Below, piece after piece: positions 32,440-56,022 of a stretch of DNA of 64,000 bases (positions within the stretch are counted from its first letter, which is position 1; every line of letters begins with the position of its first letter). The translations under genes and the position numbers were made by a program. Source of the DNA: Ephemerocybe angulata (lineage: Eukaryota; Basidiomycota; Agaricomycetes; Agaricales; Psathyrellaceae); NCBI GenBank assembly GCA_013368325.1, contig JAACJK010000164.1, positions 434,001 to 498,000 of the forward strand, written 5' to 3'. The notes beneath the pieces were generated by a model. The model was not told where the DNA came from and ran no database searches. It saw only the letters and a list, made by a program, of their open reading frames with translations.

Positions 32440-32595
32440 GGTGGTGGGAGAAAGCGAAGTGATGTCACTGACAGAACTTGGGATGAAGAGGCCACATCAA
32501 GCGGAGACTCAATATTCAATGTCCAAGTCCACGCATCCGGCGCGCGTTCCCCGACCGGACGTCTTTGTCTCTAACTTCCACCTCAGTGCAAGCCT

Positions 32596-34252: not shown

Positions 34253-34493
34253 CGTATGTAACCCCCTTTTTCCTAACTTGCTTTCCTTCACTGTTCAGCG
34301 ACTTATGCTTGATCAACTACCTTACAATGGAGTTGCAATTGTCGTTGTACATACCTTTTACAAGGAGGCTCACCTCCCAATATTACCCCCTTCTGGCTTA
34401 TACTCGCGAGGAGGTCGTGTGCACTCTCTCAAATGCTACAATAAAAGGGCGCCGGGGAAATGTCCTTTCCAGCAAGCTTGGCAAATATACCTA

Positions 34494-35804: not shown

Positions 35805-36014
35805 GGTGGTCAATGGGCGAGACTCAGATAGACGCCGAACTGGTGACGCATCGTCCATCATCACAATATCCGGCGGAGCCCTCGGCCCAACCCGAGCCCA
35901 ACCAACACTACTTAGCCCAATACTCTGGGGTTACGGGAGAGTTAGCTTTTGTTCTTGACCATTCCAAGACTTTGCCACGCAAGTTTGAACCGTTGAATCG
36001 CGTCCAATTGGCAT

Positions 36015-37605
36015 ATGGAGCTCAATAGCCAAGAGTAGGTACCCACACATTGTCGGCTAGCATGTGTAGCTCACTAAATCCCTTTGAAATAGGAGAGGAA
36101 TTGCTCTCAAACATGGCTCTACACACCATCCCAACCCATTCGACACATGCCCTGACGAGATTTTGGGAGAGATATTCTGCTCTGCAGACAATGGACCCGA
36201 GATATTCGAAACACGCTGTCCTATAGATCGGCCTTACCCGTCCACACCCTTCTACTTGTCCAGTGTTTGCAGGCGATGGCGGTTGATCGCCATATCGACC
36301 CCAGCGCTGTGGGCATACATATATATCGACAATTATCACTGGCTACACAGGGGATCGGATCAAAAGGAACACGCAGAGGCACCTCTTAAAGGCAGACACG
36401 AACTCCATGACTTCGTCGAAACTTGCTTCGCGAGGTCGGGAAAATATCCACTATACATCCAGTGGCGGGATTCTCTAACCACCTCCCTGCCCGACCCCCT
36501 TTTGGTCTCGATGTTAGCCAAAGAGTCACACCGGTGGAGAGAGATCGTCTTTCACTCCAGGGGCAATGTTTCTACCCTCGAAGCGATATTGAAGCATCAA
36601 GACTTTAAGGGGCTTCACGTCCTCCGCAAGATTCACATTGCTGAAGATATGTCCCCCAACCCCAACCTCCTCGGGAACTCGCGAGCTATTGGAGCACCCA
36701 ACTTGACCTCCGTAGTTCTTTGCTCGTCCGCCGAAAACCTCAACGCAATGGCGGGCTACATCTCCCTGACGCATATCACATATCTCCACCTCACGATCAA
36801 TTACGACCAACGACTACGTCCCGTCGCCTCCGTCATCGCGAGCAGCCCTGGCCTTAATTATCTGCACCTCTCCTTAAATATCGCGTGGCACCACATAGAC
36901 TCACTTCAACCGGGCTGCACCATGGACCTGCCACACCTTTCTAGGCTCTCAGTTTCCGCAAATCCGAGGTGTCTGTGGCACTTTTTGTCGCGTATGCGTG
37001 TACCAGCTCTGACCCATCTACACGTCTCCGAGGAAGCGCCTTTGGGACATGAGGCCGGTTCACCGAACGTTACAGACGTCGACGAATTCCTGGACGTTGT
37101 ACCTCCCGCCCTGGAAGCTCTCACTGTCCAATGCATGGATTTCCCCCAACTCAAGAGCCTGATAACAGCCACTGAACCCCGCAAAATCAATTTAACGGAC
37201 ATCGTGATCGGAGAGAACGATGGAGATGAGTGGAACATACACACCTTCCTGGAGGATGTTGTCTCTTGTGCGGGCTATACCTCTCGGATGCAAGAAGTGG
37301 CAATATTTAATCAGGTCCAGCATTTCGAAGGCGCCGACGATGGGTTCATTGAAGCAATCCTTGACTCCCTTCACCGAGCAGCGGAGGGTTCTCCCCTCTT
37401 CGAAGACCCAAGACCTCTGCGCATCGACATATATTCCGACCTGCCTATTCCAGAGGAGGCCATGGACGAATTCGACCCAGACACTCTACCTCAATGCATC
37501 GACGTCTGTCTGTACGAAGACTGGACATCCCCGGTAGACAAATGGCGGGGCTATTTCCTTGATCCAGATCCAGAAGAGGACCTGAGCGGGTTCTTCAGTA
37601 TCTGA
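36015..37605 (+). CDS. F-box protein, cluster type A, copy 2
   Basis: Two exons: 36015-36034 and 36093-37605, 510 residues. A 20-nt first exon (MELNSQE) is spliced at GTAGGT, as in copy 1. The F-box reads NPFDTCPDEILGEIFCSA, then SVCRRWRLIAISTPALWAYI. NPRCLWHFLSRMRVPALTHLH and the tail SPVDKWRGYFLDPDPEEDL correspond to copy 1 throughout, with clear divergence, so the duplication is not recent. Its start is head to head with the type B gene ending at 35804, with a gap of 210 bp. Confidence 0.88.
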
Positions 37606-37734
37606 CCTGTGATGCGGTCCTTTATACTCATTGCGTACCAGCCCATTATCGAGCGCCCATCGTGCAATTCCCGCAGATTCGGATTGTACGTACGACATCC
37701 TAAGACTAGCAACCTAGAATACAACTTGAAAGCG

Positions 37735-38991
37735 CTACCACCATTTTTCACTGTAACGCTGAAGTAATACTATTTTGAAGGGCAAATCAGAGCTACGGAG
37801 AGGAAAGTTCTCAACCGTGCGGAAAGCCTTGATCCTCTCAAAAAATATGGTCATCCTTGGAGGAAAATTGGATGGATAATCGAATTCCCCAAGACGGAGT
37901 GTATCGAGGGATGGCAGGAACGTCGATGAGGTGTAGAGCAGATGCGACAGGTCCAACCATCTTGCTTCAGTGGACCCCCTTAGACACTTTCTGAGATCGA
38001 TTAACGTGAGGTGGCGAAGCGTCGGGAGAGCGTTAAGGGCGTGAATGAGGCCTTCTTCGGGGAGCGTCATGGGCCCAAGCATTAAGGTCGTCAGCTGACA
38101 TTTCCAACGGTTCAGAACACCACCGAGGAAGCTGTCGGTGGTCAGGCCCAGATCCATGGCGGAGTCTGTCTGAGAGAGCCGGAGAGTCGACAACGATGGG
38201 AGGCGGATTGAGTGGAGTAACGCGACGAAGTCGGCTGTCTGGGGGCGACCCTGCCTTATAGATAACTCGGATAAGTGATGGGGTTGAAGAGAGGTGTTTT
38301 CCTCGTCGCGGGCGGAACCGAAGATGGTACCTTCAAAAACCCGGAGCCTTGGGACCATAACGAGGGCGTTTCGAAATTCGCCGTAGGTCAAGGAACCGGA
38401 GCCTAGAAAGGCGAGTGGGAACCTTTGCAAAGGGCAGAATGAGTGGTAGCCTTGCCCCGCGATGACTACCTTGGAAAGCGCCTTGGCGCCGGAAAAGGCG
38501 TGTGATGAGGCATGTCCTTCGATGAAAAGTGTCTGCAGGAGAGGCATCTCACTGGATGCCATTATATTTCGAATGTTGAAGGACCATCCGAAGGGTAAAC
38601 AAAGGTCCATATAGATCCAAGTCTTGGAGCACGCGACGAGGGTACGAACTAGGACATCGCACTTGTCAGACAAGTGAGACGGGGAGCTGAGAGATATCGA
38701 AAGAGGACAGGTTTTGGCTCTATCCAGCCATTCTTGAACCAAGGGGATGTTCGTTTCTAGATTTTTGTCGCTGTCGCCGGCGGCTGATATTTCCAAAGCT
38801 GACCATAACGACGGTGTCGACCAAGCAATTGCGCGCCATGCTTTGCAGATACGTCCAAAGTTGAGTGGACAAAAGCGGTTCCTGAAGAGGAGTCGTCCAT
38901 TGCGTTGGGTCTCGATCGAAGAAGTGAGAATGAATATTTCTTGTAGAACTTCAACGGGCAGAGTATCGTGAATGAGTTGGGAATCGGCCAT
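37735..38991 (-). CDS. F-box protein, cluster type B, copy 2
   Basis: Single exon, 418 residues from MADSQLIHDTLPVEVLQEI. F-box: LPVEVLQEIFILTSSI, then GRICKAWRAIAWSTPSLWSAL. Leu-rich segments follow (LPSLSTLRLSQTD, LPTLRHLTLIDLRK), and the end reads IKAFRTVENFPLRSS and FKIVLLQRYSEKWW. The frame is open upstream to 39027. Only 69 bp separate this ATG from the outer end of the transposon array at 39061, so its natural promoter has been displaced or replaced by element sequence. Confidence 0.86.
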   Translation of the reverse strand: MADSQLIHDTLPVEVLQEIFILTSSIETQRNGRLLFRNRFCPLNFGRICKAWRAIAWSTPSLWSALEISAAGDSDKNLETNIPLVQEWLDRAKTCPLSISLSSPSHLSDKCDVLVRTLVACSKTWIYMDLCLPFGWSFNIRNIMASSEMPLLQTLFIEGHASSHAFSGAKALSKVVIAGQGYHSFCPLQRFPLAFLGSGSLTYGEFRNALVMVPRLRVFEGTIFGSARDEENTSLQPHHLSELSIRQGRPQTADFVALLHSIRLPSLSTLRLSQTDSAMDLGLTTDSFLGGVLNRWKCQLTTLMLGPMTLPEEGLIHALNALPTLRHLTLIDLRKCLRGSTEARWLDLSHLLYTSSTFLPSLDTLRLGEFDYPSNFPPRMTIFFERIKAFRTVENFPLRSSDLPFKIVLLQRYSEKWW

Positions 38992-39050
38992 CGCTTCTGC
39001 AGCTGTAGGGTACGAGTTCAAGGTCAAGTTTCAAGCGCTCCTGACCGCGG

Positions 39051-39060: not shown

Positions 39061-39127
39061 CAAGGGCCCGATACTGATGGATGTGGGTAAAAAACAAATA
39101 AAGTAATTTAAATCCAAATTCCCAAAA

Positions 39128-39160
39128 GGGAAAGGGGGAGAGGGGAGGGGAGGAGGAGGG
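39128..39160 (+). other. G-run cluster (possible G-quadruplex), repeated in each copy
   Basis: Runs of three to five G separated by one to seven bases, five runs in 33 bp on the plus strand, downstream of the transposase gene. Same at 44778-44810 and 50428-50460. Confidence 0.5.
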
Positions 39161-39292
39161 AGGAGATTCTGAGTGCTCAGAAAGGTGCCTCTCGATAAGT
39201 GGGCGTGTCAAAAGATTGACGTGATATGCCTCGGCTCGGGCCATCCCAGTTTGGCCTTTCGCTATTCTTTTCTCCTGTATTCTTGAAGGAGT

Positions 39293-39324
39293 CGGATTCT
39301 GATGCGAACAAGCATCAGAATCCG
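39293..39324 (-). terminator. Perfect 13-bp hairpin downstream of the transposase gene
   Basis: CGGATTCTGATGC, loop GAACAA, then the exact reverse complement. It begins 185 bp after the stop codon. Repeated at 44943-44974 and 50593-50624. It may shape the mRNA 3' end or be a protein-binding site; the role is inferred only. Confidence 0.45.
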
Positions 39325-39508
39325 CCAGATACCACCGTAGCGACAGTAATTATTGTTCATAGAACTCCAACCGGAGATCCAATACTCGCTTAGAGCCTTA
39401 GGGGCTTTGAGAAGAGGAGCCAGGAACATAGATAGGTCAGAAGGAATGTATATTAAGTGATAGTATGCGTGGAAGTGGGATACACACGAAGCCTGTCCTA
39501 CATGCAAC

Positions 39509-42500
39509 TCATAGCCATCCTTCGCAACAGTTCTTAGTTGGTCGCGCAGAATTCCGACCAACACACTCAAACCGGCCACAGTCACGGCAAGGTCGAGGGC
39601 AATTGCGCCGAGTTTGACGGCCAGGACAGACCATCCAACTACACTTCATGCAATGGCGAGGCTTCCGTGGTTTTGTGACGGCCTTCCGTTTGTTGTGCGC
39701 TTCGATTATTCGATGATGCGTAGCCGTTTCGTTCGGAGTCTGGGTACAGGTTCCACCGGTCGGGGCTGCACCTGGAGCGGGAAACTGGTAGGTAAACATG
39801 GCGGCGGAAGGAGGTTGTGATGAAACACTCGGCGCGTGCATGCTCAGCCACGGTGCAGAAGTCGATGGGGCTTGTTGATTGGCATAGCCCAGAGTATTAC
39901 CGCCGGCGTGAGACTGTAACCAAGCCCCGTTATTCAGCGGCGGCCCACTAGCAGCGGTGCTGAACATTTGGGTCGGTTCTGCTGGAGGCTGATGCTGGAA
40001 TGAAGAAGGTGCATTATCATACACCACATGCCCAGCAGGGACACTGTGAGCCTCGAGTGAGAGGACCGGGACAGGTGGCGCAGCAGAAGTACGGTCCAAA
40101 TCAGTAAGCAGGCGGCCAAGCGGTCGACGTACTCCGTTGCTGAGGGCCGAGGATGTTCTTGCATTCAATCGCGTCTGCCGCTCCGAGAAATATGACCGTA
40201 GTTGCTCCGGAAGCTAATGCAGGCAATATTGAGTACGCACAAAAGAGAGGTGGTTGTAAGAACACACCTTGTAGAACACTCGGTCGGTTCCATCTGCGAG
40301 CGCATTCCACACCTTCACCGCGCGACTCCAATTGGGCCCCGCATTCGATGATCCGTTGAAGGCGGGGTTTCCTTGCCAGAGGTCATGGAACAGCTTCTCC
40401 TCCATCGGCGTATGGATCGGGAGAATGGGCTTGCGAGTTCCCTGCGATTTTGCGAGCAGGTCATAGCTAACCGGATTTTTACCTGTTCCTGGGGTATAAT
40501 CACCCATTCCGTTTTCATTTCGAATATCTTGCGGGATCTCAAGAACACCAATGGGGCGCTCTGAGGTCATTTGATAGTTATTGTTGTTGGTGATGGGGGA
40601 CACTTCGCGATCTTCGAATCCTTTTAGAGAACTCTTGAGATATAGCTCGAGATCTTGAATGGCATTGACCAGCCAGATTGAATAGTGACTCTTGTAGTGT
40701 TGACCAGTTGTGTTTAATGTCCCAACCTTGGAGTAAGTGAGTTTTGAGGTTATTAACCATGATAGTGATAGAATACGTACATCAAGATTGCGGCGCAGCA
40801 CCAAATCATCCATCGTGGCTTCGAGATGTCGAACAGAGACACCAGAGGAAGGGAGGTGGGGTCTGAGTTGAGTGTGGACGCCCTCCGTTGTGTTCGTTCC
40901 CCTGTGACACCGGTACACCGGGAGACCTGTCTTACTATCCTTTCCAATCTCGACGTACAGAGCAACGCCTGGCGGATCAGAGACATGGCCACGCTCGATT
41001 GTGGTGAGTATATTCTTCGCAATATTCCAGCACCGAGCGTCGAAAAGAGGCTTGTTTGTTGTTGCGTCCTTGAGAGGGCCATATGTGGTAAAGACTTCTC
41101 GAACGCGGGGATACAGAATTTCCGGGGCTGGGATGAAACGCTTGCAGTGCTTCTTCATCCGTTTGGGATGGAGTTTGCGAATTTCGTTGAACGACAGCTT
41201 GGGGTTCTGCGTGTCACCCCAGGCGGCAAGGCGATTTGCGTCCTCCGGATCGGGAAGGAAGAATGTATCGCGCAGCGTGATTAGAAAGTCATTTGTAAGG
41301 CCATGTCGCTGAGCGAGAGGGAGCATGTGCATGAGGTGCCAAGGATCCTTGATGACCCGGCTTCGTATATCATCTGGCCAGAGAGTCGGAATGGGCCCTA
41401 GGATCTCATCGGGAGACTCGGAGGCTGTGCCATCGGTATTGGCGCCTACGCCAGAGTTGGCATCTGAGTGCACAGAGTCTTGGTGGTCAACAGAAGGCCG
41501 GGGCTGAAGGCGTTGAGCACTTGGAGGGGGAGGTGGCACAGGGAGAGGTTCATATCGGATGAGATGCGAGCATGGATAGGTGACGAGGAATGGTGGTTTT
41601 CCGAGATTATTGAATGAGCAATCACGTCGGGTAACCAGTTTAGCAGCACCCCTAATAACTTCAGACACTTCAATAACAGCTGAACCCGGCGGAGTTGACA
41701 GAGATGATAGTGAGATCCGTCCAGATGCAGCTATCACCGATTTGTCCAAGCCATACAGATACACTGGTGTGCCGGAGGCAGGGATGGCGTCAGTTGGCAA
41801 CGCACTGGGTGTTTCGAGAGTGGATAATCTGTTGTATATCTCGAGGGAAGCCCAGGCATCAAGAGCCGCATACTTGATTTGCTCCTCAGTCAAGACTTGA
41901 TTGTCCCACGCCGTACTGACTCGCTCGGACACATTTTTGTTCAGCCGTTTGTGAAGGACGCGCGCAGCGAGGTCTGCCAGGGAGGTATTTCTGATGTTGT
42001 GCAGCACGCCCTGTGTCTTCGCAAGCCGAGCGAGATCAATCCCACCGACGAAGGGTCTCGAAGAGTGGCACGTAGCACAAAGACCATCAAGGTCTCTGTC
42101 CACGTTCCTTCCGACTTTCTTGACGCTTGGATTTGCAAGTAGCACCTTGAGCTGGATAGGAAGATTCCCATCAGCAACCATGTCGCCAATCTATCCTCGG
42201 CAAAGTCAGTTGCATGAACAGTCATTGGGATATGAGGAGGCGTACCTGAAATATATAAACATCATTCTTGTATGCAATCTGGACTAGAGCGGTGGGGCCC
42301 CGGTGAGTGAGACGATCATTTGCCGTAACGTCCACATTCCATTCGGTGTCGAGCCCAACTACAACCACAGCATCATCATCGGAGACGAGGTCATCCATGA
42401 TGGCTTCGCAAGCGGAGTTGATTGCAGTTGAAGTGTTCTTCACTAATGGCGGATGTCCTGAGGGAAGTGTGAGTTGTTCGAGGTGCGCATAATTCTCCAC

Positions 42501-44560
42501 AGGAACGACATCTTTAGTCAGGGAGCCATCAAACAAGCCCTCGAGGAACTGCTTGTCACCACCAATGTTATCGGTATACATAACCAGCGGCTGCGAGTGC
42601 CCGTAGAACTTCAAGGACTCGGAGAGCTGAGTCAGAGCTAGGATCGTTTGCGAATGCCCGGTTGTGGTAACGAGATGGAACGAGCGGATCTCTCCATTTT
42701 GATTCGTGACGCATAGCGCGCCGTCGAAGATCTTCTTCTTCCCAACGCGAGCAACGTGCTTTGTGATCTGCAACACAGGATATAATCAGCTATTGTCACA
42801 ACCATAAGTAGACGTATAAAAATGCACCTTAAAACTGTGGTCAAGAGAACCGACATCCAACGGAAGCATAGACGTATGTTGATGGATCTCAGATCGGTGC
42901 TCTTCCATGTAGCGGTCGTACATTGTCCGGAAAAATTGAGAACTTGGAACGAAGCCTCTGTTGCCTAGCGAGCTCGTGTCTTGGTATGGAAGGAAGACGA
43001 GATATTTTGCGCCCGTCCACTCATGCATTGACTGAGAGCAAGCCGCCAAAAATGAGTAATACTGGTATTTCATTTTGTCATACCGGACTAGGTGCTGAAC
43101 TCGAATACAATCAGAGAATTGGCTTGCACCCATTCCGTTTGCAAAGCAGGACCTCATCAGCTCGCATAGCGATGTGGAAAGGCCACTGCGGCGGCTGAAC
43201 CTAACCGGAAACTCTTCAGCAAGCTGTGGGGGCAGCATGGCAAGGATCCGAGAATCCCAGCTATGGTACGTGACCGTATGACGACCGGACGTAGGGTTCT
43301 GACAGCTGGTACACCGATAACGGTAGCCCAGAACCCAGAAGTTCGAGTCGACGTCAACGCAGCGTCGCGGTCGCGAGATTATGCCATGGCGGATAAGCGG
43401 GGTTCGACATCTGGGGCACGGGATGGGGGCTAATGACAGGGGATCCCAAACAAACATTCGGCGGGTATACAAGAGCTGAGGGGAGGGGCGGCCGTGTCGT
43501 AGTTGGAGGTACGTCGACTTTTCCGGTATCCAGAACGTGTTGAGCTCGTCGTAGAGACGAGGAACTCCTTGGGGAGTGCGGTCACTCGCAATCGTCTTGC
43601 ACGCTTGGAAATACTCGAGCAGCCAGGGTGGAAGCTCCTTCGGCGTTCGGGATGCTCCATTTTGCTTTTCTTCTGCGTCGATAGGCTCCTCGTTTGGGTC
43701 CAGGTCGTCACCAACTTCGTCTGGGCCAAGCTGGTCCCCATCCTCCCCAATCCCCTCGCCGGACGCCTCCTCCTCCAAGCTGCGCTCCTCTCCTTCTATT
43801 TCATCGTCCGAGTCCTCTTCTTCATCTTCGAAGACAGCCCTACGTGTATCCTCGCCTGAAAGCAGTGGGATAGCCGAGACCAGACCCGCATTCGGATCCG
43901 GTGAAGGATTACTTGAAGATCCTCCTGCGCTCGAGTTGGAGCTGCGGGCAGGTACGGCGGGGCCCAGCGTAGCTTGTGAGTGCGGAGTACTGCTACCACC
44001 TTGCAATGTTGTGGCCGTAGGTACTAATGAGAGCACCCCTTGACCACGAGATGTGCCTGGAACCACCTATTTCAAAAGTAAGTCTCGATAATGCAGTGAA
44101 TCACGATGATAGACTCACAAACTTGCCAAATCTAACGCTCACGGCATCGCTTACATCCTGCACATTCTTACGAGGTCTTCCTGGAGGGCGTTTGGCAGTC
44201 GGAGGACTATCTACTCGTTCCGTCTCAAGGGGCTGCTGCCGTTTACCGGGAGGGCGTCCTCGGGGACGCTTTGGGCCAATGAAGACCGGCGTCTGGGAAG
44301 TCGATTTCGGACGCCCGATTTTGCGCTGCTGGTCCGAAGGTGGGGTCTGGAAGGCGTCGTCGTCGGCAGTTAGAACCGGTCCAAACGTATATTGGACTGG
44401 ACGCGTCGCGTCATTCGGCGGTAATAGTGGTTCTTGGACTGGAAGGAGGAGGACCGTCAGGTAACGTTGAGAGCGCGATTGGGTTGGACTTACCAGCTGT
44501 GAGTGAGCCATTTTGACTCGGAAATTCACCGGGATACTCATTCATAGGGTAATCAGACAT
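39509..44560 (-). CDS. Transposase-like protein with inserted DEDDy 3'-5' exonuclease (copy 1)
   Basis: Seven exons: 44494-44560, 44119-44438, 42828-44066, 42246-42767, 40781-42190, 40268-40726, 39509-40213; phases agree, 1573 residues. Order: AT-hook-like GRP motifs (about 60-115, RGRPPGKR and PPGRPRK); acidic region about 205-262; zinc ribbon C346/C349 and C381/C384; first acidic residue D538 in LDHSFK; D608 in MYTDN; then exonuclease D682/E684 (LDTEW), D749 (NVDRDLDGL), Y823/D827 (YAALDAW); then DPWHLMHML (998) and E1152 in RGTNTTEGVH; Cys-rich tail 1527-1569. Exonuclease motifs I-III are complete. The flanking Asp, Asp, Glu pattern with a DxWH motif is as in MULE-like transposases. The family recurs in mushrooms; I recall DUF6729 for its zinc part but cannot check. 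Confidence 0.8.
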
Positions 44561-44714
44561 TATACGTGAGTTCAAGATAGATTGAGGAGGATAGTATTAT
44601 GGTAGAAGTTGAGGAGCAGGTCGCTGCTAACAGGAGCCGTATTGGGTAAAATTACATAATCATTTCAAACTCAGCATTGGTATTTGCCACAACCATAGAT
44701 AGCGAGCCTTAGTC

Positions 44715-47700
44715 GGCCCGATACTGATGGATGTGGGTAAAAAACAAATAAAGTAATTTAAATCCAAATTCCCAAAAGGGAAAGGGGGAGAGGGGAGGGG
44801 AGGAGGAGGGAGGAGATTCTGAGTGCTCAGAAAGGTGCCTCTCGATAAGTGGGCGTGTCAAAAGATTGACGTGATATGCCTCGGCTCGGGCCATCCCAGT
44901 TTGGCCTTTCGCTATTCTTTTCTCCTGTATTCTTGAAGGAGTCGGATTCTGATGCGAACAAGCATCAGAATCCGCCAGATACCACCGTAGCGACAGTAAT
45001 TATTGTTCATAGAACTCCAACCGGAGATCCAATACTCGCTTAGAGCCTTAGGGGCTTTGAGAAGAGGAGCCAGGAACATAGATAGGTCAGAAGGAATGTA
45101 TATTAAGTGATAGTATGCGTGGAAGTGGGATACACACGAAGCCTGTCCTACATGCAACTCATAGCCATCCTTCGCAACAGTTCTTAGTTGGTCGCGCAGA
45201 ATTCCGACCAACACACTCAAACCGGCCACAGTCACGGCAAGGTCGAGGGCAATTGCGCCGAGTTTGACGGCCAGGACAGACCATCCAACTACACTTCATG
45301 CAATGGCGAGGCTTCCGTGGTTTTGTGACGGCCTTCCGTTTGTTGTGCGCTTCGATTATTCGATGATGCGTAGCCGTTTCGTTCGGAGTCTGGGTACAGG
45401 TTCCACCGGTCGGGGCTGCACCTGGAGCGGGAAACTGGTAGGTAAACATGGCGGCGGAAGGAGGTTGTGATGAAACACTCGGCGCGTGCATGCTCAGCCA
45501 CGGTGCAGAAGTCGATGGGGCTTGTTGATTGGCATAGCCCAGAGTATTACCGCCGGCGTGAGACTGTAACCAAGCCCCGTTATTCAGCGGCGGCCCACTA
45601 GCAGCGGTGCTGAACATTTGGGTCGGTTCTGCTGGAGGCTGATGCTGGAATGAAGAAGGTGCATTATCATACACCACATGCCCAGCAGGGACACTGTGAG
45701 CCTCGAGTGAGAGGACCGGGACAGGTGGCGCAGCAGAAGTACGGTCCAAATCAGTAAGCAGGCGGCCAAGCGGTCGACGTACTCCGTTGCTGAGGGCCGA
45801 GGATGTTCTTGCATTCAATCGCGTCTGCCGCTCCGAGAAATATGACCGTAGTTGCTCCGGAAGCTAATGCAGGCAATATTGAGTACGCACAAAAGAGAGG
45901 TGGTTGTAAGAACACACCTTGTAGAACACTCGGTCGGTTCCATCTGCGAGCGCATTCCACACCTTCACCGCGCGACTCCAATTGGGCCCCGCATTCGATG
46001 ATCCGTTGAAGGCGGGGTTTCCTTGCCAGAGGTCATGGAACAGCTTCTCCTCCATCGGCGTATGGATCGGGAGAATGGGCTTGCGAGTTCCCTGCGATTT
46101 TGCGAGCAGGTCATAGCTAACCGGATTTTTACCTGTTCCTGGGGTATAATCACCCATTCCGTTTTCATTTCGAATATCTTGCGGGATCTCAAGAACACCA
46201 ATGGGGCGCTCTGAGGTCATTTGATAGTTATTGTTGTTGGTGATGGGGGACACTTCGCGATCTTCGAATCCTTTTAGAGAACTCTTGAGATATAGCTCGA
46301 GATCTTGAATGGCATTGACCAGCCAGATTGAATAGTGACTCTTGTAGTGTTGACCAGTTGTGTTTAATGTCCCAACCTTGGAGTAAGTGAGTTTTGAGGT
46401 TATTAACCATGATAGTGATAGAATACGTACATCAAGATTGCGGCGCAGCACCAAATCATCCATCGTGGCTTCGAGATGTCGAACAGAGACACCAGAGGAA
46501 GGGAGGTGGGGTCTGAGTTGAGTGTGGACGCCCTCCGTTGTGTTCGTTCCCCTGTGACACCGGTACACCGGGAGACCTGTCTTACTATCCTTTCCAATCT
46601 CGACGTACAGAGCAACGCCTGGCGGATCAGAGACATGGCCACGCTCGATTGTGGTGAGTATATTCTTCGCAATATTCCAGCACCGAGCGTCGAAAAGAGG
46701 CTTGTTTGTTGTTGCGTCCTTGAGAGGGCCATATGTGGTAAAGACTTCTCGAACGCGGGGATACAGAATTTCCGGGGCTGGGATGAAACGCTTGCAGTGC
46801 TTCTTCATCCGTTTGGGATGGAGTTTGCGAATTTCGTTGAACGACAGCTTGGGGTTCTGCGTGTCACCCCAGGCGGCAAGGCGATTTGCGTCCTCCGGAT
46901 CGGGAAGGAAGAATGTATCGCGCAGCGTGATTAGAAAGTCATTTGTAAGGCCATGTCGCTGAGCGAGAGGGAGCATGTGCATGAGGTGCCAAGGATCCTT
47001 GATGACCCGGCTTCGTATATCATCTGGCCAGAGAGTCGGAATGGGCCCTAGGATCTCATCGGGAGACTCGGAGGCTGTGCCATCGGTATTGGCGCCTACG
47101 CCAGAGTTGGCATCTGAGTGCACAGAGTCTTGGTGGTCAACAGAAGGCCGGGGCTGAAGGCGTTGAGCACTTGGAGGGGGAGGTGGCACAGGGAGAGGTT
47201 CATATCGGATGAGATGCGAGCATGGATAGGTGACGAGGAATGGTGGTTTTCCGAGATTATTGAATGAGCAATCACGTCGGGTAACCAGTTTAGCAGCACC
47301 CCTAATAACTTCAGACACTTCAATAACAGCTGAACCCGGCGGAGTTGACAGAGATGATAGTGAGATCCGTCCAGATGCAGCTATCACCGATTTGTCCAAG
47401 CCATACAGATACACTGGTGTGCCGGAGGCAGGGATGGCGTCAGTTGGCAACGCACTGGGTGTTTCGAGAGTGGATAATCTGTTGTATATCTCGAGGGAAG
47501 CCCAGGCATCAAGAGCCGCATACTTGATTTGCTCCTCAGTCAAGACTTGATTGTCCCACGCCGTACTGACTCGCTCGGACACATTTTTGTTCAGCCGTTT
47601 GTGAAGGACGCGCGCAGCGAGGTCTGCCAGGGAGGTATTTCTGATGTTGTGCAGCACGCCCTGTGTCTTCGCAAGCCGAGCGAGATCAATCCCACCGACG

Positions 47701-50364
47701 AAGGGTCTCGAAGAGTGGCACGTAGCACAAAGACCATCAAGGTCTCTGTCCACGTTCCTTCCGACTTTCTTGACGCTTGGATTTGCAAGTAGCACCTTGA
47801 GCTGGATAGGAAGATTCCCATCAGCAACCATGTCGCCAATCTATCCTCGGCAAAGTCAGTTGCATGAACAGTCATTGGGATATGAGGAGGCGTACCTGAA
47901 ATATATAAACATCATTCTTGTATGCAATCTGGACTAGAGCGGTGGGGCCCCGGTGAGTGAGACGATCATTTGCCGTAACGTCCACATTCCATTCGGTGTC
48001 GAGCCCAACTACAACCACAGCATCATCATCGGAGACGAGGTCATCCATGATGGCTTCGCAAGCGGAGTTGATTGCAGTTGAAGTGTTCTTCACTAATGGC
48101 GGATGTCCTGAGGGAAGTGTGAGTTGTTCGAGGTGCGCATAATTCTCCACAGGAACGACATCTTTAGTCAGGGAGCCATCAAACAAGCCCTCGAGGAACT
48201 GCTTGTCACCACCAATGTTATCGGTATACATAACCAGCGGCTGCGAGTGCCCGTAGAACTTCAAGGACTCGGAGAGCTGAGTCAGAGCTAGGATCGTTTG
48301 CGAATGCCCGGTTGTGGTAACGAGATGGAACGAGCGGATCTCTCCATTTTGATTCGTGACGCATAGCGCGCCGTCGAAGATCTTCTTCTTCCCAACGCGA
48401 GCAACGTGCTTTGTGATCTGCAACACAGGATATAATCAGCTATTGTCACAACCATAAGTAGACGTATAAAAATGCACCTTAAAACTGTGGTCAAGAGAAC
48501 CGACATCCAACGGAAGCATAGACGTATGTTGATGGATCTCAGATCGGTGCTCTTCCATGTAGCGGTCGTACATTGTCCGGAAAAATTGAGAACTTGGAAC
48601 GAAGCCTCTGTTGCCTAGCGAGCTCGTGTCTTGGTATGGAAGGAAGACGAGATATTTTGCGCCCGTCCACTCATGCATTGACTGAGAGCAAGCCGCCAAA
48701 AATGAGTAATACTGGTATTTCATTTTGTCATACCGGACTAGGTGCTGAACTCGAATACAATCAGAGAATTGGCTTGCACCCATTCCGTTTGCAAAGCAGG
48801 ACCTCATCAGCTCGCATAGCGATGTGGAAAGGCCACTGCGGCGGCTGAACCTAACCGGAAACTCTTCAGCAAGCTGTGGGGGCAGCATGGCAAGGATCCG
48901 AGAATCCCAGCTATGGTACGTGACCGTATGACGACCGGACGTAGGGTTCTGACAGCTGGTACACCGATAACGGTAGCCCAGAACCCAGAAGTTCGAGTCG
49001 ACGTCAACGCAGCGTCGCGGTCGCGAGATTATGCCATGGCGGATAAGCGGGGTTCGACATCTGGGGCACGGGATGGGGGCTAATGACAGGGGATCCCAAA
49101 CAAACATTCGGCGGGTATACAAGAGCTGAGGGGAGGGGCGGCCGTGTCGTAGTTGGAGGTACGTCGACTTTTCCGGTATCCAGAACGTGTTGAGCTCGTC
49201 GTAGAGACGAGGAACTCCTTGGGGAGTGCGGTCACTCGCAATCGTCTTGCACGCTTGGAAATACTCGAGCAGCCAGGGTGGAAGCTCCTTCGGCGTTCGG
49301 GATGCTCCATTTTGCTTTTCTTCTGCGTCGATAGGCTCCTCGTTTGGGTCCAGGTCGTCACCAACTTCGTCTGGGCCAAGCTGGTCCCCATCCTCCCCAA
49401 TCCCCTCGCCGGACGCCTCCTCCTCCAAGCTGCGCTCCTCTCCTTCTATTTCATCGTCCGAGTCCTCTTCTTCATCTTCGAAGACAGCCCTACGTGTATC
49501 CTCGCCTGAAAGCAGTGGGATAGCCGAGACCAGACCCGCATTCGGATCCGGTGAAGGATTACTTGAAGATCCTCCTGCGCTCGAGTTGGAGCTGCGGGCA
49601 GGTACGGCGGGGCCCAGCGTAGCTTGTGAGTGCGGAGTACTGCTACCACCTTGCAATGTTGTGGCCGTAGGTACTAATGAGAGCACCCCTTGACCACGAG
49701 ATGTGCCTGGAACCACCTATTTCAAAAGTAAGTCTCGATAATGCAGTGAATCACGATGATAGACTCACAAACTTGCCAAATCTAACGCTCACGGCATCGC
49801 TTACATCCTGCACATTCTTACGAGGTCTTCCTGGAGGGCGTTTGGCAGTCGGAGGACTATCTACTCGTTCCGTCTCAAGGGGCTGCTGCCGTTTACCGGG
49901 AGGGCGTCCTCGGGGACGCTTTGGGCCAATGAAGACCGGCGTCTGGGAAGTCGATTTCGGACGCCCGATTTTGCGCTGCTGGTCCGAAGGTGGGGTCTGG
50001 AAGGCGTCGTCGTCGGCAGTTAGAACCGGTCCAAACGTATATTGGACTGGACGCGTCGCGTCATTCGGCGGTAATAGTGGTTCTTGGACTGGAAGGAGGA
50101 GGACCGTCAGGTAACGTTGAGAGCGCGATTGGGTTGGACTTACCAGCTGTGAGTGAGCCATTTTGACTCGGAAATTCACCGGGATACTCATTCATAGGGT
50201 AATCAGACATTATACGTGAGTTCAAGATAGATTGAGGAGGATAGTATTATGGTAGAAGTTGAGGAGCAGGTCGCTGCTAACAGGAGCCGTATTGGGTAAA
50301 ATTACATAATCATTTCAAACTCAGCATTGGTATTTGCCACAACCATAGATAGCGAGCCTTAGTC
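44715..50364 (-). mobile_element. DDE/exonuclease DNA transposon, copy 2
   Basis: Head-to-tail with copies 1 and 3. Its left terminal repeat lacks the outermost CAAG and is preceded by TC, which equals the first two bases of the right flank of the array. Its right terminal repeat is full. Confidence 0.75.
45159..50210 (-). CDS. Transposase/exonuclease protein, copy 2
   Basis: Exons are those of copy 1 shifted by 5650 (first exon 50144-50210, last 45159-45863). No stop, frameshift or substitution was seen, so this copy appears as intact as the others. Confidence 0.8.
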
Positions 50365-53300
50365 GGCCCGATACTGATGGATGTGGGTAAAAAACAAATA
50401 AAGTAATTTAAATCCAAATTCCCAAAAGGGAAAGGGGGAGAGGGGAGGGGAGGAGGAGGGAGGAGATTCTGAGTGCTCAGAAAGGTGCCTCTCGATAAGT
50501 GGGCGTGTCAAAAGATTGACGTGATATGCCTCGGCTCGGGCCATCCCAGTTTGGCCTTTCGCTATTCTTTTCTCCTGTATTCTTGAAGGAGTCGGATTCT
50601 GATGCGAACAAGCATCAGAATCCGCCAGATACCACCGTAGCGACAGTAATTATTGTTCATAGAACTCCAACCGGAGATCCAATACTCGCTTAGAGCCTTA
50701 GGGGCTTTGAGAAGAGGAGCCAGGAACATAGATAGGTCAGAAGGAATGTATATTAAGTGATAGTATGCGTGGAAGTGGGATACACACGAAGCCTGTCCTA
50801 CATGCAACTCATAGCCATCCTTCGCAACAGTTCTTAGTTGGTCGCGCAGAATTCCGACCAACACACTCAAACCGGCCACAGTCACGGCAAGGTCGAGGGC
50901 AATTGCGCCGAGTTTGACGGCCAGGACAGACCATCCAACTACACTTCATGCAATGGCGAGGCTTCCGTGGTTTTGTGACGGCCTTCCGTTTGTTGTGCGC
51001 TTCGATTATTCGATGATGCGTAGCCGTTTCGTTCGGAGTCTGGGTACAGGTTCCACCGGTCGGGGCTGCACCTGGAGCGGGAAACTGGTAGGTAAACATG
51101 GCGGCGGAAGGAGGTTGTGATGAAACACTCGGCGCGTGCATGCTCAGCCACGGTGCAGAAGTCGATGGGGCTTGTTGATTGGCATAGCCCAGAGTATTAC
51201 CGCCGGCGTGAGACTGTAACCAAGCCCCGTTATTCAGCGGCGGCCCACTAGCAGCGGTGCTGAACATTTGGGTCGGTTCTGCTGGAGGCTGATGCTGGAA
51301 TGAAGAAGGTGCATTATCATACACCACATGCCCAGCAGGGACACTGTGAGCCTCGAGTGAGAGGACCGGGACAGGTGGCGCAGCAGAAGTACGGTCCAAA
51401 TCAGTAAGCAGGCGGCCAAGCGGTCGACGTACTCCGTTGCTGAGGGCCGAGGATGTTCTTGCATTCAATCGCGTCTGCCGCTCCGAGAAATATGACCGTA
51501 GTTGCTCCGGAAGCTAATGCAGGCAATATTGAGTACGCACAAAAGAGAGGTGGTTGTAAGAACACACCTTGTAGAACACTCGGTCGGTTCCATCTGCGAG
51601 CGCATTCCACACCTTCACCGCGCGACTCCAATTGGGCCCCGCATTCGATGATCCGTTGAAGGCGGGGTTTCCTTGCCAGAGGTCATGGAACAGCTTCTCC
51701 TCCATCGGCGTATGGATCGGGAGAATGGGCTTGCGAGTTCCCTGCGATTTTGCGAGCAGGTCATAGCTAACCGGATTTTTACCTGTTCCTGGGGTATAAT
51801 CACCCATTCCGTTTTCATTTCGAATATCTTGCGGGATCTCAAGAACACCAATGGGGCGCTCTGAGGTCATTTGATAGTTATTGTTGTTGGTGATGGGGGA
51901 CACTTCGCGATCTTCGAATCCTTTTAGAGAACTCTTGAGATATAGCTCGAGATCTTGAATGGCATTGACCAGCCAGATTGAATAGTGACTCTTGTAGTGT
52001 TGACCAGTTGTGTTTAATGTCCCAACCTTGGAGTAAGTGAGTTTTGAGGTTATTAACCATGATAGTGATAGAATACGTACATCAAGATTGCGGCGCAGCA
52101 CCAAATCATCCATCGTGGCTTCGAGATGTCGAACAGAGACACCAGAGGAAGGGAGGTGGGGTCTGAGTTGAGTGTGGACGCCCTCCGTTGTGTTCGTTCC
52201 CCTGTGACACCGGTACACCGGGAGACCTGTCTTACTATCCTTTCCAATCTCGACGTACAGAGCAACGCCTGGCGGATCAGAGACATGGCCACGCTCGATT
52301 GTGGTGAGTATATTCTTCGCAATATTCCAGCACCGAGCGTCGAAAAGAGGCTTGTTTGTTGTTGCGTCCTTGAGAGGGCCATATGTGGTAAAGACTTCTC
52401 GAACGCGGGGATACAGAATTTCCGGGGCTGGGATGAAACGCTTGCAGTGCTTCTTCATCCGTTTGGGATGGAGTTTGCGAATTTCGTTGAACGACAGCTT
52501 GGGGTTCTGCGTGTCACCCCAGGCGGCAAGGCGATTTGCGTCCTCCGGATCGGGAAGGAAGAATGTATCGCGCAGCGTGATTAGAAAGTCATTTGTAAGG
52601 CCATGTCGCTGAGCGAGAGGGAGCATGTGCATGAGGTGCCAAGGATCCTTGATGACCCGGCTTCGTATATCATCTGGCCAGAGAGTCGGAATGGGCCCTA
52701 GGATCTCATCGGGAGACTCGGAGGCTGTGCCATCGGTATTGGCGCCTACGCCAGAGTTGGCATCTGAGTGCACAGAGTCTTGGTGGTCAACAGAAGGCCG
52801 GGGCTGAAGGCGTTGAGCACTTGGAGGGGGAGGTGGCACAGGGAGAGGTTCATATCGGATGAGATGCGAGCATGGATAGGTGACGAGGAATGGTGGTTTT
52901 CCGAGATTATTGAATGAGCAATCACGTCGGGTAACCAGTTTAGCAGCACCCCTAATAACTTCAGACACTTCAATAACAGCTGAACCCGGCGGAGTTGACA
53001 GAGATGATAGTGAGATCCGTCCAGATGCAGCTATCACCGATTTGTCCAAGCCATACAGATACACTGGTGTGCCGGAGGCAGGGATGGCGTCAGTTGGCAA
53101 CGCACTGGGTGTTTCGAGAGTGGATAATCTGTTGTATATCTCGAGGGAAGCCCAGGCATCAAGAGCCGCATACTTGATTTGCTCCTCAGTCAAGACTTGA
53201 TTGTCCCACGCCGTACTGACTCGCTCGGACACATTTTTGTTCAGCCGTTTGTGAAGGACGCGCGCAGCGAGGTCTGCCAGGGAGGTATTTCTGATGTTGT

Positions 53301-56014
53301 GCAGCACGCCCTGTGTCTTCGCAAGCCGAGCGAGATCAATCCCACCGACGAAGGGTCTCGAAGAGTGGCACGTAGCACAAAGACCATCAAGGTCTCTGTC
53401 CACGTTCCTTCCGACTTTCTTGACGCTTGGATTTGCAAGTAGCACCTTGAGCTGGATAGGAAGATTCCCATCAGCAACCATGTCGCCAATCTATCCTCGG
53501 CAAAGTCAGTTGCATGAACAGTCATTGGGATATGAGGAGGCGTACCTGAAATATATAAACATCATTCTTGTATGCAATCTGGACTAGAGCGGTGGGGCCC
53601 CGGTGAGTGAGACGATCATTTGCCGTAACGTCCACATTCCATTCGGTGTCGAGCCCAACTACAACCACAGCATCATCATCGGAGACGAGGTCATCCATGA
53701 TGGCTTCGCAAGCGGAGTTGATTGCAGTTGAAGTGTTCTTCACTAATGGCGGATGTCCTGAGGGAAGTGTGAGTTGTTCGAGGTGCGCATAATTCTCCAC
53801 AGGAACGACATCTTTAGTCAGGGAGCCATCAAACAAGCCCTCGAGGAACTGCTTGTCACCACCAATGTTATCGGTATACATAACCAGCGGCTGCGAGTGC
53901 CCGTAGAACTTCAAGGACTCGGAGAGCTGAGTCAGAGCTAGGATCGTTTGCGAATGCCCGGTTGTGGTAACGAGATGGAACGAGCGGATCTCTCCATTTT
54001 GATTCGTGACGCATAGCGCGCCGTCGAAGATCTTCTTCTTCCCAACGCGAGCAACGTGCTTTGTGATCTGCAACACAGGATATAATCAGCTATTGTCACA
54101 ACCATAAGTAGACGTATAAAAATGCACCTTAAAACTGTGGTCAAGAGAACCGACATCCAACGGAAGCATAGACGTATGTTGATGGATCTCAGATCGGTGC
54201 TCTTCCATGTAGCGGTCGTACATTGTCCGGAAAAATTGAGAACTTGGAACGAAGCCTCTGTTGCCTAGCGAGCTCGTGTCTTGGTATGGAAGGAAGACGA
54301 GATATTTTGCGCCCGTCCACTCATGCATTGACTGAGAGCAAGCCGCCAAAAATGAGTAATACTGGTATTTCATTTTGTCATACCGGACTAGGTGCTGAAC
54401 TCGAATACAATCAGAGAATTGGCTTGCACCCATTCCGTTTGCAAAGCAGGACCTCATCAGCTCGCATAGCGATGTGGAAAGGCCACTGCGGCGGCTGAAC
54501 CTAACCGGAAACTCTTCAGCAAGCTGTGGGGGCAGCATGGCAAGGATCCGAGAATCCCAGCTATGGTACGTGACCGTATGACGACCGGACGTAGGGTTCT
54601 GACAGCTGGTACACCGATAACGGTAGCCCAGAACCCAGAAGTTCGAGTCGACGTCAACGCAGCGTCGCGGTCGCGAGATTATGCCATGGCGGATAAGCGG
54701 GGTTCGACATCTGGGGCACGGGATGGGGGCTAATGACAGGGGATCCCAAACAAACATTCGGCGGGTATACAAGAGCTGAGGGGAGGGGCGGCCGTGTCGT
54801 AGTTGGAGGTACGTCGACTTTTCCGGTATCCAGAACGTGTTGAGCTCGTCGTAGAGACGAGGAACTCCTTGGGGAGTGCGGTCACTCGCAATCGTCTTGC
54901 ACGCTTGGAAATACTCGAGCAGCCAGGGTGGAAGCTCCTTCGGCGTTCGGGATGCTCCATTTTGCTTTTCTTCTGCGTCGATAGGCTCCTCGTTTGGGTC
55001 CAGGTCGTCACCAACTTCGTCTGGGCCAAGCTGGTCCCCATCCTCCCCAATCCCCTCGCCGGACGCCTCCTCCTCCAAGCTGCGCTCCTCTCCTTCTATT
55101 TCATCGTCCGAGTCCTCTTCTTCATCTTCGAAGACAGCCCTACGTGTATCCTCGCCTGAAAGCAGTGGGATAGCCGAGACCAGACCCGCATTCGGATCCG
55201 GTGAAGGATTACTTGAAGATCCTCCTGCGCTCGAGTTGGAGCTGCGGGCAGGTACGGCGGGGCCCAGCGTAGCTTGTGAGTGCGGAGTACTGCTACCACC
55301 TTGCAATGTTGTGGCCGTAGGTACTAATGAGAGCACCCCTTGACCACGAGATGTGCCTGGAACCACCTATTTCAAAAGTAAGTCTCGATAATGCAGTGAA
55401 TCACGATGATAGACTCACAAACTTGCCAAATCTAACGCTCACGGCATCGCTTACATCCTGCACATTCTTACGAGGTCTTCCTGGAGGGCGTTTGGCAGTC
55501 GGAGGACTATCTACTCGTTCCGTCTCAAGGGGCTGCTGCCGTTTACCGGGAGGGCGTCCTCGGGGACGCTTTGGGCCAATGAAGACCGGCGTCTGGGAAG
55601 TCGATTTCGGACGCCCGATTTTGCGCTGCTGGTCCGAAGGTGGGGTCTGGAAGGCGTCGTCGTCGGCAGTTAGAACCGGTCCAAACGTATATTGGACTGG
55701 ACGCGTCGCGTCATTCGGCGGTAATAGTGGTTCTTGGACTGGAAGGAGGAGGACCGTCAGGTAACGTTGAGAGCGCGATTGGGTTGGACTTACCAGCTGT
55801 GAGTGAGCCATTTTGACTCGGAAATTCACCGGGATACTCATTCATAGGGTAATCAGACATTATACGTGAGTTCAAGATAGATTGAGGAGGATAGTATTAT
55901 GGTAGAAGTTGAGGAGCAGGTCGCTGCTAACAGGAGCCGTATTGGGTAAAATTACATAATCATTTCAAACTCAGCATTGGTATTTGCCACAACCATAGAT
56001 AGCGAGCCTTAGTC
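50365..56014 (-). mobile_element. DDE/exonuclease DNA transposon, copy 3
   Basis: The last unit; its right terminal repeat ends at 56012 and faces the FMP25-like gene. The left terminus is shortened exactly as in copy 2. Confidence 0.75.
50809..55860 (-). CDS. Transposase/exonuclease protein, copy 3
   Basis: Exons: 55794-55860, 55419-55738, 54128-55366, 53546-54067, 52081-53490, 51568-52026, 50809-51513. The start MSDYPMNEYPGEF at 55860 is chosen because it splices in phase (GTAAGT donor) into the AT-hook exon. A downstream in-frame-looking ATG at 55841 belongs to a different, unspliced frame. The intron 52027-52080 is 54 nt with no stop in frame, so retention would add 18 residues without ending the protein. 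Its 5' end is 152 bp from the right terminus, leaving room for a short promoter inside the element. Confidence 0.8.
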
Positions 56015-56022
56015 CGGCTTCT
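56013..56022 (+). repeat. Candidate target-site duplication, right side of array
   Basis: TCCGGCTTCT, 7/10 to the left flank at 39051-39060. Confidence 0.35.

What the first reader, a model, noticed from the sequence alone, without database searches (positions are those of the whole stretch)
39509..56014. 3'-5' exonuclease domain embedded inside a transposase catalytic core
Seen: in one spliced 1573-residue frame, the Asp at 538 (LDHSFK) and Asp at 608 (MYTDN) are followed by a full DEDDy exonuclease (D682, E684, D749, Y823/D827), and only then by DPWHLMHML and Glu1152 (RGTNTTEGVH). Known: MULE-like and related transposases have Asp, Asp, a following H-containing motif, then Glu on one RNase-H fold. 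Inference: the exonuclease is an insertion between the second Asp and Glu strands, as the helical insert of hAT transposases is. Two nucleases in one chain could combine end cleavage with strand resection.
Basis: partly seen in the sequence, partly recalled or inferred. Interest (0 to 1): 0.88.

Follow-up and report, generated by a model that had tools for sequence, protein, structure and literature searches.

The report
Exonuclease inside a mushroom jumping gene
A fungal genome carries three identical back-to-back copies of a mobile DNA element whose predicted single protein has a DNA-trimming exonuclease set inside its likely transposase core, a layout already reported in 2013; the exact six-base joints between copies here and in related arrays suggest that it likely multiplies by a copy-out route best known from bacteria.

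Summary
The window carries three identical head-to-tail elements. Each encodes a predicted 1573-residue, seven-exon protein with a complete DEDDy exonuclease between the second catalytic Asp and a DxxH motif, and the Glu after it. Two exons cross the domain borders, so exon skipping cannot release the exonuclease whole. The architecture is already published: Kojima & Jurka 2013 report it for Dada transposons of Laccaria and Ectocarpus. A fish relative without it (28 residues at that point) indicates that it is an insert. The DDE fold itself is supported by motifs and predicted strand order only.

What is new is the element anatomy. Relatives in the same genome have terminal inverted repeats and perfect 8-bp target duplications. 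Arrays, also of short non-autonomous copies, are joined by 6-bp spacers (15 of 16 junctions; one has 5). In all four arrays with an intact outer duplication, a spacer equals its last six bases. The IS256 family shows similar numbers (8-bp duplication, joints mostly 5-8 bp, 6 best), so I favour copy-out/paste-in transposition (inferred, untested). The window array itself lacks a matching outer duplication. The exonuclease probably does not set the joint: zebrafish Dada-U1, reported without one, shows the same 8-versus-6 pattern.

The parts
39065..44708 (-). Transposon copy A (5,644 bp): 5' end GGCTCGCTATC.. at 44708, 3' end ..CAGTATCGGGCC at 39065
   Evidence: exact repeat boundaries; ends set by a short derivative with a perfect 8-bp duplication in contig C220
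44715..50358 (-). Transposon copy B, identical to A
50365..56008 (-). Transposon copy C, identical to A
44709..44714 (-). 6-bp spacer GACTAA between copies B and A
50359..50364 (-). 6-bp spacer GACTAA between copies C and B
56009..56016 (-). 8 bases outside the 5' end of the array, CGGACTAA; the last six equal the spacer. The other outer flank (39064-39057, CTTGATAA) does not match it
44494..44560 (-). exon 1 of copy A (start ATG at 44560)
   Evidence: GT-AG splicing
44119..44438 (-). exon 2 of copy A (weak AT-hook-like stretch below the Pfam cut-off)
42828..44066 (-). exon 3 of copy A: DUF6729 with CCCC zinc ribbon, ending in LDHSFK with D538 (codon 42842-42840)
42246..42767 (-). exon 4 of copy A: second catalytic D608 (42572-42570) and exonuclease D682 (42350-42348), E684 (42344-42342)
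40781..42190 (-). exon 5 of copy A: exonuclease D749 (42094-42092), Y823 (41872-41870), D827 (41860-41858); DxxH D998 (41347-41345); E1152 (40885-40883)
40268..40726 (-). exon 6 of copy A
39509..40213 (-). exon 7 of copy A: linker and C-terminal Cys-rich finger, stop
45159..50210 (-). transposase-exonuclease gene of copy B (ATG to stop)
   Evidence: identity to copy A
50809..55860 (-). transposase-exonuclease gene of copy C (ATG to stop)
   Evidence: identity to copy A

Best explanation
The three identical 5,644-bp units are tandem copies of a DNA transposon of the exonuclease-bearing Dada kind, whose single predicted protein has a WRN-like 3'-5' exonuclease set between the second catalytic Asp and the DxxH motif of its likely DDE transposase, and which likely moves by an IS256-like copy-out/paste-in reaction. 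Shown: the three copies, the joints, the splice-consistent frame, the order of motifs, their conservation, the terminal inverted repeats and 8-bp duplications of relatives, and the 6-bp rule at array joints. Inferred: the RNase H fold of the DDE part (motifs, strand order of a model, published alignment of Dada with MuDR/hAT/IS256). Inferred mechanism: the 3' end of the right end attacks the same (or a sister) strand about 6 nt outside a left end. Within one copy this would give a circle with a 6-bp joint; between sister copies it would give a head-to-tail dimer. A later symmetric insertion with 8-bp stagger would give the 8-bp duplication. The exonuclease appears to be kept by selection and likely trims or removes a 3' end made during these steps, but it is probably not what sets the 6-bp distance.
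Against: No circle, excised element or transposition was observed. The window array has no matching outer duplication (CGGACTAA versus CTTGATAA), and two other arrays (C117 1.26 and 1.30 Mb) also lack one. One of the 6-bp spacers (AGTGCG, C117 1.30 Mb) is not a suffix of the flank TCAAGTGC but AGTGC plus a G. No other left end preceded by CGGTTG is in the assembly (exact pattern), although copy-out would leave the donor in place. In ISCth4 either end can be the donor; here the flank-derived spacers all come from the left-end side. The KolobokP paper says copy-out spacers typically have the length of the duplication, which is not so here. Kojima & Jurka read the 6-bp spacer of zebrafish Dada-U1 as the true duplication length, and their Dada-U6 insertions support 6 bp. 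The DDE part has no Pfam hit and no structural match was reported. Model confidence is moderate (pTM 0.64 and 0.60). The C-terminal finger is Cys-rich, not the CCHC of Dada.
Confidence: 0.6

Rival explanations
1. Ordinary cut-and-paste: arrays arose by repeated insertion into the target duplication of an earlier copy, or by unequal crossing-over.
For: Cut-and-paste is the usual reading for eukaryotic DDE transposons (general knowledge); back-to-back insertion does occur here (C133 inverted pair with abutting but different 8-bp duplications).
Against: Insertion into, or crossing-over at, the duplication predicts 8-bp spacers; 15 of 16 are 6 bp and one is 5. Insertion shifted by two bases would leave two extra bases beside the outermost left end; none is seen in the four arrays with intact duplications.
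Confidence: 0.25
2. The built-in exonuclease resects the target duplication from 8 to 6 bp during joining, so the arrays are a product of the exonuclease.
For: Exonuclease and transposase are in one predicted chain and both active sites are conserved.
Against: Zebrafish Dada-U1 shows 8-bp flanks and a 6-bp joint, and the paper reports the exonuclease only for Laccaria and Ectocarpus. IS256-family joints of about 6 bp form with a transposase for which no exonuclease is mentioned in the passages read.
Confidence: 0.1
3. Assembly artefact: the tandem copies are mis-joined long repeats.
For: Window copies are 100% identical and no reads were available.
Against: In other arrays the copies differ by single bases or indels (C60 a T-run indel, C117 1.27 Mb a substitution), and joints differ within one array (AAGTGC/AGTGC; AAGAAT/CGGTTG). 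The joint rule recurs in eight arrays, two of which (C117 1.26 and 1.30 Mb) share a flank.
Confidence: 0.05
4. The exonuclease is made as a separate protein by alternative transcripts, and the fusion is a gene-model artefact.
For: No transcript data; ten of 98 alignment rows lack about 48 residues of the exonuclease in their gene models.
Against: D608, D682 and E684 share one exon, and D749 to E1152 share the next, so no exon combination gives the exonuclease alone; 48 of 52 complete rows keep all ten residues in this order.
Confidence: 0.03

Closest known systems
Dada DNA transposons with exonuclease: families of Laccaria bicolor (Dada-1_LB, Dada-2_LB) and Ectocarpus siliculosus (Dada-1_ES) in Kojima & Jurka 2013, PMC3706591 (abstract, Results and Discussion read; not figures or supplements)
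   Same: DDE triad, DxxH after the second Asp, CCCC finger before the core, DEDDy exonuclease between the second Asp and DxxH, introns, similar size (Table 1 coordinates of Dada-2_LB span 5,652 bp; window element 5,644 bp)
   Different: In the text read no termini or target duplications are given for those families; here inverted repeats, 8-bp duplications and arrays are defined. Their sequences were not compared
RNA-gene-targeting Dada of fish, Daphnia, Perkinsus (same paper)
   Same: Core motifs; tandem copies joined by 6 bp while flanks match over 8 bp (Dada-U1)
   Different: No exonuclease reported; insertion inside snRNA/tRNA genes; no terminal inverted repeats in Dada-U6 and Dada-U1; duplication given as 6-7 bp; CCHC finger at the C terminus
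IS256-family insertion sequences such as ISCth4 (PMC7780238, passages read)
   Same: C/DxxH in an RNase H-type transposase, 8-bp duplications, joints of about 6 bp, circles; tandem dimers in a cited paper title
   Different: Bacterial, 1.5 kb, no exonuclease mentioned in the passages; either end can be donor; the mechanism is demonstrated there, only inferred here
KolobokP (PMC9587614, passages read)
   Same: Eukaryotic DDD/E transposon with an extra nuclease, multimers and footprints likened to copy-out/paste-in
   Different: His-Me finger homing endonuclease, long terminal direct repeats, neighbouring copies share a repeat

Membership tests
Dada superfamily | DDE triad with DxxH following the second Asp | tested here: met
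   D538, D608, D998xxH1001, E1152; kept in 95-100% of rows with letters; catalytic role itself untested
Dada superfamily | N-terminal CCCC zinc finger | tested here: met
   C346 75 of 78 rows with letters, C349 75/76, C381 73/74, C384 68/71; lies in DUF6729
Dada superfamily | C-terminal CCHC zinc finger | tested here: not met
   Window tail is CxxC..CxG..C..CxxC without the His; exact spacing C-x2-C-x9-H-x8-C found in 1 of 182 proteins (many are fragments), the fish P0180
Dada superfamily | 6-7-bp target-site duplication | tested here: not met
   Nine loci of relatives have perfect 8-bp duplications; 6 bp occurs as joint between tandem copies. The window array shows no matching duplication at all
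Dada superfamily | Insertion inside small RNA genes (for families with definable termini) | tested here: inconclusive
   ARAGORN on 7 rejoined empty sites finds no tRNA, and the sites share no similarity beyond the overlapping C133 pair and 10-11-bp chance words; Rfam on 12 loci and the window finds none, but snRNA genes split by an insertion were not tested
Dada superfamily, exonuclease branch | DEDDy exonuclease between the second Asp and DxxH with all four acidic residues | tested here: met
   paper statement
Dada superfamily | Sequence similarity to named Dada transposases | not tested
   Repbase and the paper's supplement were not available; a fish protein with Dada hallmarks matches at 3.9e-35
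IS256-type copy-out/paste-in transposition | Joint of the two ends with about 6 bp of donor flank | tested here: met
   15 of 16 accepted genomic joints are 6 bp; flank-derived in 4 of 4 arrays with intact duplication, with two further foreign spacers in one of them
IS256-type copy-out/paste-in transposition | Circular intermediate and retained donor copy | not testable with these tools
   Needs DNA from cells
hAT / MULE / Kolobok / P superfamilies | Sequence match to the family's Pfam model | tested here: inconclusive
   No such hit in 28 members at E<=1; structural list filled by exonucleases

The most novel reading that the evidence does not exclude
Exonuclease-type Dada elements are eukaryotic copy-out/paste-in transposons: a DDE enzyme with a built-in 3'-5' exonuclease joins its right end to a point 6 bp outside a left end, makes circles and head-to-tail multimers, and pastes monomers or whole multimers back with 8-bp duplications, so that autonomous and tiny non-autonomous copies become tandem arrays.
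Probability: 0.45. Interest if true: 0.85.

Novelty: new variant of a known kind. Interest (0 to 1): 0.6.

Why it matters
The embedded exonuclease is known, but in the text I read its elements had no published ends or duplications. Here they have, and with them comes a sharp numerical signature (8-bp duplication, 6-bp joint, spacer taken from the left-end flank) close to the one of bacterial copy-out/paste-in. If true, a replicative DDE pathway operates in fungi and perhaps fish. It would explain how a transposon turns itself into tandem repeats, question the published 6-bp duplication of zebrafish Dada-U1, and make the role of the exonuclease testable with two point mutants. It also gives Pfam DUF6729 a likely meaning: the N-terminal, zinc-binding part of Dada-type transposases.

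Tried and rejected
Rejected: rolling-circle (Helitron) origin, because relatives have inverted repeats and 8-bp duplications. No tRNA gene at the insertion sites. Rejected as junctions: C196 (3-bp) and C125 (25-bp), judged chance palindromes without subterminal element sequence. C184 is counted among the 16 joints but is likely the other allele of C60 (same spacer and flank). The duplication scan of eight loci gave none for C85 and the two C117:1.71-1.72 Mb copies. C128 outer flanks were not determined. The joint scans cover four end types only, without mismatches; C133-type ends were not scanned. A 1366-residue open frame listed for C184 proved to be read-through of introns. Pfam on 28 members found no DDE family. 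Structure searches list exonucleases and no DDE chain among the rows shown; that absence is not evidence. Protein searches scored only about 8,000 candidates each, so lists are lower bounds. Paper searches: DUF6729 none; transposase plus exonuclease domain plus Agaricomycetes none; led to the Dada paper; copy-out in eukaryotes gave KolobokP as the nearest. The library holds open-licence papers only, so I do not claim the joint rule is absent from print. Papers: PMC3706591 abstract, Results and Discussion; PMC7780238, PMC9587614, PMC8869645, PMC12730594, PMC10368747 passages only; PMC3985635 listing only.
Full report
What is in the window. Between 39065 and 56014 the sequence repeats three times with period 5,650 and no difference. 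A 711-bp internally deleted derivative on contig C220 of the same genome has the same two ends inside a perfect 8-bp duplication, GCCGTTTG. This fixes the element as 5,644 bp, starting GGCTCGCTATC and ending CAGTATCGGGCC (on the minus strand), and leaves a 6-bp spacer GACTAA between copies. The genome is probably Ephemerocybe angulata: two of its contigs have exactly the lengths (3,712,436 and 674,659) of contigs behind NCBI proteins of that species.

The protein. Six GT-AG introns of 52-60 nt give 1573 residues. DUF6729 with four Cys precedes D538; D608 follows 70 residues later. A DEDDy exonuclease fills about 672-840, then come a linker, DPWH (D998-H1001) and RGTNTTEGVH (E1152). Exon 4 holds D608, D682 and E684; exon 5 holds D749, Y823, D827, D998 and E1152. 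The exonuclease therefore cannot be freed whole by exon skipping. Transcripts were not available.

Conservation. A first search gave 13 relatives, a profile search 103 at E<=1e-5; each scored about 8,000 candidates. Named sources are mostly mushroom-forming fungi, with a chytrid (Podochytrium) and Phenoliferia, Mucor and a fish. Across 111 rows both sets of acidic residues are almost invariant. D538-D608 is exactly 70 residues in 75 of 85 measured rows, DxxH to E is 153-155 in 61 of 72, and D608 to D998 ranges from 302 to 502 in 68 rows. Between the C60 and C120 relatives, dN/dS is 0.075 (DUF6729), 0.058 (first DDE part), 0.205 (exonuclease), 0.362 (second DDE part) and 0.585 (linker). Other pairs are mostly saturated at silent sites, so this rests on one pair.

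The exonuclease is an insert. A profile made without it (five members) found P0180 from the fish Merluccius polli (3.9e-35). This has DUF6729 (9.6e-82) but no exonuclease, D376 and D444 (68 apart), 28 residues from there to D472xxH475, and E637. It also has C-x2-C-x9-H-x8-C at its end, the exact spacing given for zebrafish Dada-U6 (C1359, C1362, H1372, C1381). It was the only one of 182 proteins with that spacing. That the exonuclease was gained rather than lost is inferred from its absence in most Dada and in the related superfamilies.

Known architecture. [quoted passage not shown] The headline of the finding is therefore not new. The window element differs from the textbook description in its C-terminal finger (Cys-rich, no CCHC). 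Its relatives differ in having inverted repeats and 8-bp duplications, and no RNA-gene target was found (snRNA genes not tested at rejoined sites). I call it Dada-like, of the exonuclease branch, rather than a fully tested member.

Ends and duplications. A scan of eight loci for ends with inverted repeats and a duplication gave five perfect 8-bp cases (C60 array, C120, C152, C133 twice) and none for three loci. Four more perfect cases came later: C220, C117:754232-756003, C117:1925331-1928568 and C185:93333-97234. Arrays without a matching outer pair are the window (CGGACTAA/CTTGATAA), C117:1263366-1281442 (CATAGTGC/TCAAGTGC) and C117:1299865-1311914 (TCAAGTGC/CATTTTTT). The last two share TCAAGTGC and may be one array split by a rearrangement (inference). 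The C128 flanks were not determined.

Joints. Exact-pattern scans for right end, 0-25 bases, left end gave 7, 7, 2 and 2 distinct places for four end types. Two were dropped as chance palindromes (3 and 25 bp). Of the remaining 16, fifteen have 6 bp and one has 5; C184 is probably the other allele of C60. In the four arrays with perfect outer duplications a spacer equals the last six bases of the duplication: GGCGCCTT/CGCCTT, GACTTATA/CTTATA, CATAATGA/TAATGA (three times), GAAAGAAT/AAGAAT. The C185 array also has CGGTTG twice, a sequence not from its flank and found beside no other left end in the assembly (exact pattern). In C117 1.26 and 1.30 Mb the spacers are AAGTGC, AGTGC and AGTGCG next to a flank TCAAGTGC; the last is not a plain suffix. 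The arrays at C117:754 kb, C117:1.93 Mb, C185 and C128 have periods of 889, 811, 865 and 783 bp, so they consist of short copies that cannot hold the gene (the fourth C185 copy is longer), and the ends suffice in cis.

Reading. Insertion of a second copy into the duplication, or crossing-over there, would give 8-bp spacers. Insertion shifted by two would leave two extra bases at the outermost left end, which is not seen. A right-end 3' hydroxyl attacking 6 nt outside a left end gives what is seen. In the IS256 family this is the copy-out step: ISCth4 has 8-bp duplications, in vitro joints of 6-8 bp and best insertion with 6 bp; IS256 circles have 5, 6, 7 or 19 bp; either end may be the donor. 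The KolobokP authors, who likened eukaryotic footprints to copy-out/paste-in, state that the spacer is typically as long as the duplication, which differs from the pattern here. Zebrafish Dada-U1 shows apparent 8-bp duplications CTGCGAAT with tandem copies separated by GCGAAT. Its authors took this, with the 6-bp duplications of Dada-U6, as evidence for 6 bp. Given our independent 8-bp cases, the alternative reading for Dada-U1, duplication 8 and joint 6, now deserves weight. Because the paper reports the exonuclease for Laccaria and Ectocarpus only, it is unlikely to set the joint; its task stays open, with trimming of a 3' end the best guess.

Noticed in passing
P0002, P0004, P0011, P0028, P0029, P0032, P0036, P0039, P0049, P0055: Ten of 98 alignment rows are annotated with about 48 residues missing at the same place inside the exonuclease (between D749 and Y823). 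This may be a shared gene-model error or an alternative splice that disables the exonuclease.
   Followed up: partly
C185:93333-97234 (L045): Array of short non-autonomous copies with two spacers (CGGTTG) that do not come from its own target duplication; no other left end with that flank was found in the assembly.
   Followed up: partly
C133:163352-175155 (L030, L031): Two full-length copies inserted back to back in opposite orientation, each with its own perfect 8-bp duplication, the two duplications abutting.
   Followed up: partly
C220:6011-6721 (L017): Short derivative of the window element whose last 13 bp (CCAGTATCGGGCC) are duplicated at its 3' end.
   Followed up: no
model mce37bfa6918b residues about 391-469: A well-ordered beta-rich piece follows the exonuclease inside the same insert; its fold was not identified.
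   Followed up: no
window 21521-25794 (+): Open frames that read like a Dicer-type gene (helicase part, then RNase III-like parts); named from reading the translation, not from a search.
   Followed up: no
window 31132-39030: Cluster of several F-box-like (leucine-rich) open frames on both strands beside the array; named from reading the translation.
   Followed up: no
Pfam PF20499 (DUF6729): This unnamed domain coincides with the N-terminal CCCC zinc part of Dada-type transposases in fungi and in a fish protein.
   Followed up: partly
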